A stretch of DNA of 64,000 nucleotides from Halobacterium noricense (GTDB taxonomy: Archaea > Halobacteriota > Halobacteria > Halobacteriales > Halobacteriaceae): NCBI RefSeq assembly GCF_021233435.1, contig NZ_CP089468.1, positions 2,046,001 to 2,110,000 on the forward strand, in the 5' to 3' direction. Below are positions 646 to 50,407 of this stretch, one piece after another (the stretch's first letter is position 1; every line of letters starts with the position of its first letter). The position numbers and the translations under genes are program-made. The notes beneath the pieces were generated by a model. That model saw nothing but the letters and a program-made list of their open reading frames with translations. It did not search any database and was not told where the DNA came from.

Positions 646-757
646 GGCTCACAGTGTTCCCGCTCGCATTACCGTGGCCTCCCGTCGGTCGAGCACGCGC
701 CTCGCGCATCGCTGCGCTCCGCGCTCGCATTACCGTGGCCTCACTTCGTTCGGCCAC
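646..757 (-). repeat. Hairpin repeat element with 11-nt loops (copy A)
   Basis: Read on the minus strand this is a chain of stem-loops. The first has a 6-bp stem (735-740 with 752-757) closing the 11-nt loop GAACGAAGTGA. The second has loop GACCGACGGGA (680-690), flanked by half-stems that no longer match fully (674-679, 691-696). A third loop-like unit, GAACACTGTGA, lies at 649-659. A 21-bp direct repeat occurs at 661-681 and 722-742. The same loops and the same following string TAATGCGAGCG recur at 50.2 kb. The element separates two divergent genes and lies just upstream of the L21e TATA box. Confidence 0.7.
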
Positions 758-48941: not shown

Positions 48942-50168
48942 ATGTCGACCATCAAGGACAGCGTCCACGACCACATCGACGTCGGGGGCGTCGCTGCGGA
49001 CCTGCTCGACACGCCGCCCGTCCAGCGGCTCCGCCGCATCAAGCAGTTGGGCACGGTCGCGCTCGTCTACCCCTCCGCGAACCACACCCGTTTCGAGCAC
49101 TCCTTGGGCGTCTTCCACCTCGCCGACCGCGCGCTCGACCACCTCGACATCGCCGGCCAGCGCGCGGACCGCGTGCGCGCCGCCGCCATCCTCCACGACG
49201 TCGGCCACAGCCCGTACAGCCACAACATCGAGGGCGTCGTCGCCCGCGGCACCGGGAAAGAACACGACGATGTCGACGAACTCGTCACCGAGGGCCGCGT
49301 CGCCGCCGTCCTCGACGACCACGACATCGACCCCGAGGAGGTCGCGGCGCTGATTCGCGGCGACGGCGAACTCGCCCAGTTGGTCGCGGGGGAGTTGGAC
49401 GTGGACCGGATGGACTACCTCGTGCGCGACGCCCACCACACCGGCGTCCCCTACGGCACTATCGACCACGGCCGCCTCGTCCGCGAGTTGACGTTCATCG
49501 ACGGCGACCTCGTGCTCGACGAAGGCAACGTCCAGACCGCCGAATCCCTCCTACTGGCGCGCGCGCTGATGAACCCGACCGTCTACAGCCACCACGTCGC
49601 CCGCATCAGCAAGTCGATGCTGCGCCGCGGCACCGAAGCCCTCCTCGATACCGCGGCAATCGACGCCGAGCAGCTCCGCCGCATGGACGACCACGAACTC
49701 TCCGTCGCGCTGCGCAGCCACGAGCAGAGCCAGCAGTTCGGCCGCCGGCTCGCCGAGCGAGACCTCTACAAGCGCGCCGTCTGGGCGGAGATGGGCGACG
49801 TCAGCGACGACCTGCTCGACGCCAACCACGACGAAGTCCGCGAGTTCGAGGAACAGGTCGCGGCGGACGCCAACGTCGACCCGGACGCCGTCATCCTCGA
49901 CGTGCCCGGGAAGCCGTCGATGCGCGAATCCACGACCGGCGTGCTCGTCGGCGGCGAAGTCCGGCGGCTGGACGAGCAGTCCACGCTCGTGCGCGCGCTC
50001 CAGGTCGCCCAGCGCGAACAGTGGCGTCTCGGCGTCTATACGCCCGAAGCGCACGTCGAAGCCGTCGGGCAGGCCGCCGAGCGCATGCTCGGCCTCGAAA
50101 CAGACGGCGCGCTCATCAGTGACGTGAACACGCCCGGGCGGTACGCGTCGTTGGCAGAGTTCGAATAG
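48942..50168 (+). CDS. HD-domain phosphohydrolase (dNTPase-like)
   Basis: A 408-residue HD-superfamily hydrolase. 'LLDTPPVQRLRRIKQLG' and 'HTRFEHSLGVFHLADRALD' (H53) precede the metal motif 'ILHDVGHSPYSHN' (H85, D86). 'VAGELDVDRMDYLVRDAHHT' supplies the last Asp. The family (SAMHD1/YdhA-like) includes dNTP triphosphohydrolases. Archaeal substrates are untested here. A TATA-like GGTTTTTAGG precedes the ATG by about 25 bases. An 11-nt-loop hairpin element follows directly. Confidence 0.88.
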   Translation: MSTIKDSVHDHIDVGGVAADLLDTPPVQRLRRIKQLGTVALVYPSANHTRFEHSLGVFHLADRALDHLDIAGQRADRVRAAAILHDVGHSPYSHNIEGVVARGTGKEHDDVDELVTEGRVAAVLDDHDIDPEEVAALIRGDGELAQLVAGELDVDRMDYLVRDAHHTGVPYGTIDHGRLVRELTFIDGDLVLDEGNVQTAESLLLARALMNPTVYSHHVARISKSMLRRGTEALLDTAAIDAEQLRRMDDHELSVALRSHEQSQQFGRRLAERDLYKRAVWAEMGDVSDDLLDANHDEVREFEEQVAADANVDPDAVILDVPGKPSMRESTTGVLVGGEVRRLDEQSTLVRALQVAQREQWRLGVYTPEAHVEAVGQAAERMLGLETDGALISDVNTPGRYASLAEFE

Positions 50169-50314
50169 CGTGCTCGAACGCAGTGAGAGCACGTTAATGC
50201 GAGCGCGGAGCGCGTGCTCGACCAACGGGAGAGCACGGAACGACGAACGGTGAACGGAGTGAACCGTGAGCGAAGCGATGCGCGAGTAGCGTGGCCGACT
50301 GAAAAGAGGCCACG
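50169..50314 (+). repeat. Hairpin repeat element with 11-nt loops (copy B)
   Basis: Four stem-loops, each with an exactly 11-nt loop: 7-bp stem and loop GAACGCAGTGA (50169-50193), 7-bp stem and GACCAACGGGA (50213-50237), 5-bp stem and GAACGGAGTGA (50247-50267), 7-bp stem and GACTGAAAAGA (50290-50314). The second arm of the first is followed by TTAATGCGAGCG, as in copy A on the opposite strand. The rest of the gap to 50407 has no gene I can support. Confidence 0.75.
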
Positions 50315-50407
50315 TTAGAGCGAACGGCGACCAGCGGGAGCCGTGAGAAGAGTGCCCGACCCGCCGCGTCGAGTAACCTTCACGGTACCGGAGGTGCACC
50401 TCCCGGT

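What the first reader, a model, noticed from the sequence alone, without database searches (positions are those of the whole stretch)
646..757. A dispersed hairpin family with a fixed 11-nt GA...GA loop and compensating stems
Copy A (minus strand, 646-757) and copy B (plus strand, 50169-50314) contain the loops GAACGAAGTGA, GACCGACGGGA, GAACGCAGTGA, GACCAACGGGA, GAACGGAGTGA and GACTGAAAAGA. All are 11 nt and begin and end with GA. The closing stems vary: GTGGCC/GGCCAC in one, GTGCTC/GAGCAC in another. The change in one arm is matched in the other. Three units are followed by TAATGCGAGCG. Covarying stems with a conserved loop imply selection on RNA or single-strand DNA structure. I know of no named family with this signature.
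Basis: seen in the sequence. Interest (0 to 1): 0.72.

Follow-up and report, generated by a model that had tools for sequence, protein, structure and literature searches.

The report
Haloarchaeal GA-capped DNA hairpin repeats
Salt-loving archaea carry dozens to over a hundred scattered short hairpin sequences that keep the same unusually stable folded tip while their letters change quickly in matched pairs; they look like REP-type DNA repeats that act as folded single-stranded DNA, and hairpins with the same tip turn up in distant bacteria.

Summary
The six loops are present and the family is genome-wide: GAACGNAGTGA occurs 77 times against 0 for the reversed control, and a covariance model finds at least 135 matches. 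The "11-nt loop" is not a loop. It reads as a tandem G·A/A·G step, two Watson-Crick pairs and a C(GNA)G triloop, the DNA cap known from d(GCGAAGC) and the phage N4 promoter hairpin. In arrays two modules alternate: H1 (7-10 bp stem) and H2 (exactly 5 bp between two G·A steps). At two orthologous sites in sister species the hairpins sit at the same place with rewritten, compensated stems. RNA in mRNAs is disfavoured: no strand bias to genes, copies in divergent and convergent gaps, G·T pairs not preferred, GNRA loops barely enriched. Best reading: a REP-like DNA hairpin repeat. One subfamily is present or absent at an orthologous site with 7-nt direct repeats; another has amplified in tandem 7.5 times. 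It lacks the GTAG/CGTC tags of known REPs and the palindromes of resident IS605 elements, so its mover is unknown. The cap also occurs in bacterial REP-like hairpins. It is widespread in haloarchaea and at background in the rest of the phylum.

The parts
735..757 (-). Copy A, H1 hairpin: 6-bp stem GTGGCC/GGCCAC, cap GAACGAAGTGA (741-751)
   Evidence: orthologues in sister genomes
704..724 (-). Copy A, H2 hairpin: GCGCG/TGCGC stem (one G·T), cap GAGCGCAGCGA (709-719), outer GA/GA
673..697 (-). Copy A, chimeric H1: arms CGTGCTC and GGCCACG do not fully match, cap GACCGACGGGA (680-690)
50166..50196 (+). Copy B, H1: stem CGTGCTC/GAGCACG extended to 10 pairs with one G·T (TAG/TTA), cap GAACGCAGTGA (50176-50186); begins at the HD gene's stop codon
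50203..50213 (+). Copy B, degenerate H2: GCGC-GGA-GCGC, a C(GNA)G triloop hairpin
   Evidence: homologous H2 intact in sister genomes
50213..50237 (+). Copy B, second H1: stem CGTGCTC/GAGCACG, cap GACCAACGGGA (50220-50230)
50245..50269 (+). Copy B, H2: outer GA/GA, 5-bp stem ACGGT/ACCGT, cap GAACGGAGTGA (50252-50262)
50268..50278 (+). Copy B, bare cap GAGCGAAGCGA without a matched stem
50290..50314 (+). Copy B, third H1: stem CGTGGCC/GGCCACG, cap GACTGAAAAGA (50297-50307; inner C·A mismatch)
50322..50346 (+).
48942..50168 (+). Neighbour: HD-domain protein gene ending at copy B
   Evidence: Pfam PF01966, PF19276
50408..51439 (+). Neighbour: amidohydrolase-family gene downstream of copy B
   Evidence: Pfam PF01979
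811..1101 (+). Neighbour: ribosomal protein L21e gene, divergent from the minus-strand gene at 12-560; copy A lies between them
   Evidence: Pfam PF01157

Best explanation
These are REP-like interspersed palindromic DNA elements. Each unit is a DNA hairpin: a variable Watson-Crick stem, a tandem G·A/A·G step, two Watson-Crick pairs and a C(GNA)G triloop. Shown: the parts, their order, the compensation and the spread. Inferred: the fold forms when the DNA is single-stranded or negatively supercoiled, as in the N4 promoter hairpin, and a structure-reading DNA protein (a transposase or recombinase in trans, or a host structural protein) recognises the shape and not the letters. Copies spread and turn over at the DNA level by insertion, conversion and tandem duplication. 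That is why the shape stays while stem letters are replaced in both arms, and why copy number ranges from 5 to more than 130 among species of one genus. The protein is not identified.
For: Genome-wide and order-wide enrichment. Cap pairs covary; GA and C(GNA)G stay fixed. Orthologous-site compensation. No gene-strand bias; copies in divergent and convergent gaps. G·T not preferred at the inner pair: 1 against 117 Watson-Crick and 5 A·C. C(GNA)G enriched 8.6-fold, GNRA 1.65-fold. [quoted passage not shown] Fixed H1/H2 grammar. Tandem amplification of a 77-bp unit and a presence/absence insert with 7-nt direct repeats.
Against: No mobilising enzyme found: resident Y1 transposases lack GA caps at their ends. 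RNA energies also fold the array well, z -4.9. Most copies show no clean target-site duplication; the HD-gene site is ambiguous. No experiment shows extrusion in vivo, and haloarchaeal salt may oppose it.
Confidence: 0.58

Rival explanations
1. Structured RNA: the hairpins act in transcripts, as 3'-end stabilisers, terminators or protein-binding sites in UTRs or small RNAs.
For: RNA folding of copy B gives the expected multi-hairpin structure, -75.2 kcal/mol, z -4.9, none of 200 shuffles as good; copy B starts at a stop codon in sense orientation; convergent gaps are over-represented (11 of 84).
Against: Co-directional gaps: sense 7, antisense 7, mixed 2; nine occupied gaps are divergent. G·U-type pairs are not preferred. 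GNRA loops are barely enriched. No Rfam match.
Confidence: 0.2
2. Mutational by-product: nascent strands fold back at imperfect palindromes and template-switching perfects the arms, so compensation needs no selection.
For: Orthologous changes are all two-sided with none one-sided; fast turnover of stems beside conserved flanks; tandem amplification.
Against: Such correction should also turn the G·A steps into Watson-Crick pairs; instead both G·A steps are invariant and the triloop keeps GNA with C-G closure. H2 always has 5 bp between G·A steps. It may still supply the two-sided changes under the best explanation.
Confidence: 0.12
3. The units are miniature ends of resident IS200/IS605 elements (PATEs), moved by their TnpA.
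For: Two hairpins on the same strand, as at IS605 ends; Y1 transposases are present; haloarchaea are rich in PATEs (PMC3119063).
Against: Palindromes beside the four full-length resident TnpA genes have TTCA loops and no GA caps lie there. PATEs are described as making no target duplications.
Confidence: 0.08

Closest known systems
REP elements, GTAG and CGTC superfamilies (Di Nocera et al. 2013, PMC3733652)
   Same: Short, intergenic, dispersed, hairpin-forming, with variable stems, in large and uneven numbers between related species. A Bradyrhizobium hit (L163) with CGTC and CCCA ends carries the GA/GNA cap.
   Different: No conserved GTAG or CGTC tag or CCA tail in the haloarchaeal units; regular H1-H2 same-strand alternation; the paper does not mention GNA loops or G·A pairs.
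REPINs (Bertels and Rainey 2011, PMC3116915)
   Same: Two-part hairpin units, compensatory changes, tandem clusters.
   Different: REPINs are two inverted REPs forming one hairpin and are linked to RAYT genes; here two hairpins lie in the same orientation and no RAYT link was found.
Phage N4 early-promoter hairpin and d(GCGAAGC) mini-hairpin
   Same: C(GNA)G triloop with a sheared G·A pair; C:G closure and loop G and A needed for extrusion (PMC4496689; PMC6479982).
   Different: No N4-type polymerase or promoter role was looked for or implied; here the cap stands on tandem G·A steps.
PATEs and SMRs of Haloquadratum (PMC3119063)
   Same: Haloarchaeal, transposase-free, palindromic; SMR-A elements insert into other elements' palindromes, as the 52-bp insert here does.
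   Different: Different palindromes and lengths, 7-nt direct repeats here, hairpin caps not described there.

Membership tests
REP element (general sense) | Short palindromic repeat, dispersed, mainly extragenic, in high copy number | tested here: met
REP, GTAG superfamily | Conserved GTAG tetranucleotide at one end | tested here: not met
   TAG precedes H1 at the HD-gene site and a few others, but most H1 units are preceded by GCCG, AGCG or similar
REP, CGTC superfamily | CGTC at the 5' end and a CCA tail | tested here: not met
   absent from the haloarchaeal units; present only in bacterial hits such as L163
REPIN/RAYT system | Associated Y1 (RAYT) gene flanked by the repeats | tested here: not met
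   four full-length Y1 genes lie without GA caps around them; one short Y1-like fragment lies near caps by a tRNA-Phe gene
PATE / IS605-derived element | Palindromes related to those of resident IS605-type elements | tested here: not met
   resident palindromes have TTCA loops
C(GNA)G DNA hairpin (N4 type) | C-G closing pair with G and A as first and third loop bases | tested here: met
   4-8 pair C-G in 63/69, GNA in 47/69; enrichment 8.6-fold
C(GNA)G DNA hairpin (N4 type) | Hairpin extrusion at physiological supercoiling | not testable with these tools
   needs chemical probing
Kink-turn RNA | Tandem G·A next to a 3-nt bulge | tested here: not met
   the G·A step is symmetric, with no bulge; no Rfam hit at either copy

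The most novel reading that the evidence does not exclude
One DNA fold, tandem G·A steps under a C(GNA)G cap, is selected again and again in dispersed hairpin repeats of archaea and bacteria because some widespread DNA machinery reads the extruded hairpin's shape; the haloarchaeal H1/H2 arrays are an archaeal case and REP families of several bacterial phyla are others.
Probability: 0.3. Interest if true: 0.82.

Novelty: new variant of a known kind. Interest (0 to 1): 0.62.

Why it matters
It gives haloarchaea a REP-like repeat class defined by DNA shape and not by sequence, which sequence clustering and perfect-inverted-repeat surveys overlook: a 2026 survey of 118,019 genomes required arms of at least 10 bp and spacers of at most 8 (PMC13155455). 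Compensation at orthologous sites makes selection on extruded or single-stranded DNA directly testable. The same cap in distant bacterial hairpins may offer a handle on the unknown mover of transposase-less REPs.

Tried and rejected
Rfam: only two tRNAs in the window. Exact loop strings in 5.39 million papers: titles list no paper on such a repeat; the hits look like primers and other oligonucleotides, which I did not open one by one. RAYT or IS605 link: none found. Energy folding to separate RNA from DNA: not decisive. Target-site duplication at the HD-gene site: occupied genomes show TCGAGTA on both sides and G011/G001 show one copy, but outgroups G003 and G005 also have two similar copies, so insertion cannot be told from deletion. 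A2 pair statistics are biased because I selected matched stems; I rely on A1 and the stem-blind count. All-hairpin counts including coding DNA were swamped by background.

Full report
WHAT IS THERE. The window lies in a 3.32 Mb, 3-contig genome that I take to be haloarchaeal: named haloarchaea share the motif and its gene content fits (my inference). Copy A sits between a divergent pair: an unnamed gene (12-560, minus, no Pfam hit) and ribosomal protein L21e (811-1101, plus). Copy B fills the gap between an HD-domain gene and an amidohydrolase gene, both plus. All six loops are present. Within the window, 11-nt GA..GA interiors with stems of 5 bp or more occur 11 times against 0-4 in shuffles, and no other loop length stands out.

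IT IS A GENOME-WIDE FAMILY. GAACGNAGTGA alone occurs 77 times (37 forward, 40 reverse) against 0 for the reversed pattern, with all four bases at N. I sampled 864 kb of the genome, called genes (85% coding) and asked without a preset motif which hairpins stand out between genes. Part of this sample was chosen around known hits; in the unbiased part GA..GA was still the top 11-nt class (13), and in the whole sample it was the largest single class (69), with C(GNA)G triloops next. A covariance model finds 135 matches in the own genome (only 150 candidates were scored, so a lower bound), 5 to 128 in the 12 other genomes of the genus, 6 to 78 in most other haloarchaeal families searched, and 0 and 2 in two outliers. 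The loop is at background in most of the rest of the phylum.

ANATOMY. In the 69 sampled intergenic units with stems of at least 5 bp, positions 3-9 of the 'loop' pair in 65 (G-C 25, A-T 23, C-G 17), positions 4-8 pair in 66 (C-G in 63), and positions 5-7 are GNA in 47. The 11 nt are therefore G·A/A·G, two Watson-Crick pairs and a triloop. The same pattern in coding sequence (39 units) shows far less inner pairing (11 with both pairs, 5 with G5/A7). C(GNA)G hairpins are enriched 8.6-fold over shuffles, GNA without the C-G closing pair 1.2-fold and GNRA tetraloops 1.65-fold. The minority triloops are ANC, ACT and GNC. From memory, unverified here, ANC and GNC are also documented DNA triloop closures (Chou and co-workers); a library search found no text for them. 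That the G·A steps are of the sheared kind is inference from known DNA and RNA structures.

TWO MODULES. H1 has a 7-10 bp stem, commonly starting CGTG. A linker of 6-10 nt, usually ending in GA, leads to H2, which always has exactly 5 bp between two tandem G·A steps: 28 of 28 units with an outer GA/GA have a 5-bp stem. Copy B is a run of three H1s with H2s or H2 remnants. At L260:18907-19486 a 77-bp H1-H2 unit is repeated 7.5 times at 100% identity.

ORTHOLOGOUS COVARIATION. Seven of 13 genomes of the genus carry an array directly after the HD gene, and seven carry one upstream of L21e. Flanks are conserved, but the stems read CGTGCTC, CGTGGC, CGTGGCC, CGTGACC and CATGGTC after the HD gene, and GTGGCC, CGCGGGT, CGTGGGT and CGTGACC before L21e, nearly always with matching partner arms. 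Over 13 orthologous H1 units 96.6% of cells pair (shuffled 77.0, sd 2.3), 24 cells changed on both sides, none on one side only, and the covariation score is 0.587 against 0.178 (0 of 500 shuffles as high; slid controls at most 0.134). One G004 unit with a 1-bp shorter stem was left out, and the two loci are pooled. G and A of both G·A steps never vary.

RNA OR DNA. In 36 occupied gaps, clusters in co-directional gaps are sense 7, antisense 7, mixed 2; 9 lie in divergent gaps and 11 in convergent gaps. In a stem-blind set of 131 caps the 3-9 pair is Watson-Crick 117, G·T 1, A·C 5; selection on RNA would be expected to let G·U pass between the A-U and G-C forms, both common. The closing stem pair does show 6 G·T in 78. 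RNA energies fold the array well (z -4.9) and DNA energies less so (z -2.5); I do not treat either as decisive. The cap matches the N4 promoter hairpin, where the C:G closing pair and the G and A of the loop are needed for extrusion at physiological supercoiling (PMC4496689), and d(GCGAAGC) (cited in PMC6479982). I therefore favour DNA.

MOVEMENT. A second subfamily is a 52-bp insert with two hairpins: GCGAACG-N-CGTTCGC (a C(GNA)G hairpin on one or the other strand) and CGGAAGAC-GAACGNAGTGA-GTCTTCCG. It sits inside another inverted repeat (GCCCCTTTCAGTCC...GGACTGAAAGGGGC), and most full copies are flanked by GGACTGA on both sides. One orthologous site is filled in G002 and empty in G004, G010 and G012. 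That is insertion with a 7-nt duplication, or conversion from another copy. Resident Y1 transposases have TTCA-loop palindromes and no GA caps nearby, so no mover is identified.

BEYOND HALOARCHAEA. Several lie in long REP-like hairpins: Bradyrhizobium with CGTC...CCCA, Parcubacteria, Kerfeldbacteria, Methanosarcina, a deltaproteobacterium. In those genomes GARCGNAGYGA usually exceeds its reversed control, for example 347 against 26 in an Accumulibacter genome and 63 against 4 in a Parcubacteria genome, though a few show little excess. Inner-pair covariation is significant in an Acidobacteria genome (p 5e-9, first 100 listed matches) and in Methanosarcina (p 0.001). These genomes were chosen because they contain the motif, and copies are related, so this shows occurrence, not frequency.

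VERDICT. A real, widespread, structure-conserved DNA hairpin repeat: a REP-like variant without REP tags. The reading protein and the way it spreads are open.

Noticed in passing
L260:18907-19486 (G000:C1 near 2168907-2169486): A 77-bp H1-H2 unit repeated 7.5 times at 100% identity in a divergent gap; a recent tandem amplification.
   Followed up: partly
L036:3503, L046:2806, L277 and other loci: A 52-bp two-hairpin insert flanked by GGACTGA repeats inside another repeated palindrome; filled in G002 and empty in three sister genomes at one orthologous site.
   Followed up: partly
L031:6330 and about 15 similar sites in five genomes: The host element of that insert: a large inverted repeat GCCCCTTTCAGTCC...GGACTGAAAGGGGC with an inner CCGGTTGG/CAGCCGG hairpin, dispersed and unnamed here.
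   Followed up: no
L035:2000-3300, L044:12940-12990, L158, L190: Hairpins with core GTCGCGCGCAGCGAACGNAGTGAGCGAGCACGTC and variable, matched outer stems, flanked by T-arm-like GGTTCGAATC sequences or close to a tRNA-Phe gene and a repeat of its 3' end.
   Followed up: partly
L008, L020, L022, L033:18945: A GA-cap hairpin followed by a conserved TTTTTAGCGTAGATTTTT stretch at several sites; possible small transcript or terminator family.
   Followed up: no
L036:3310, L043:1689, L043:3408, L044:15781, L065:3923: A near-identical hairpin GGGAGAC-GAGCACTGCGA-GTCTCCC with an ACT triloop instead of GNA, in at least five places.
   Followed up: no
intergenic sample L031-L070 plus window: UUCG-like tetraloop hairpins are also enriched, 16 against 3.8 in shuffles; cause not examined.
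   Followed up: no
window 673-697: One H1 in copy A has arms of two different H1 types (CGTGCTC and GGCCACG), as if two units had recombined.
   Followed up: no
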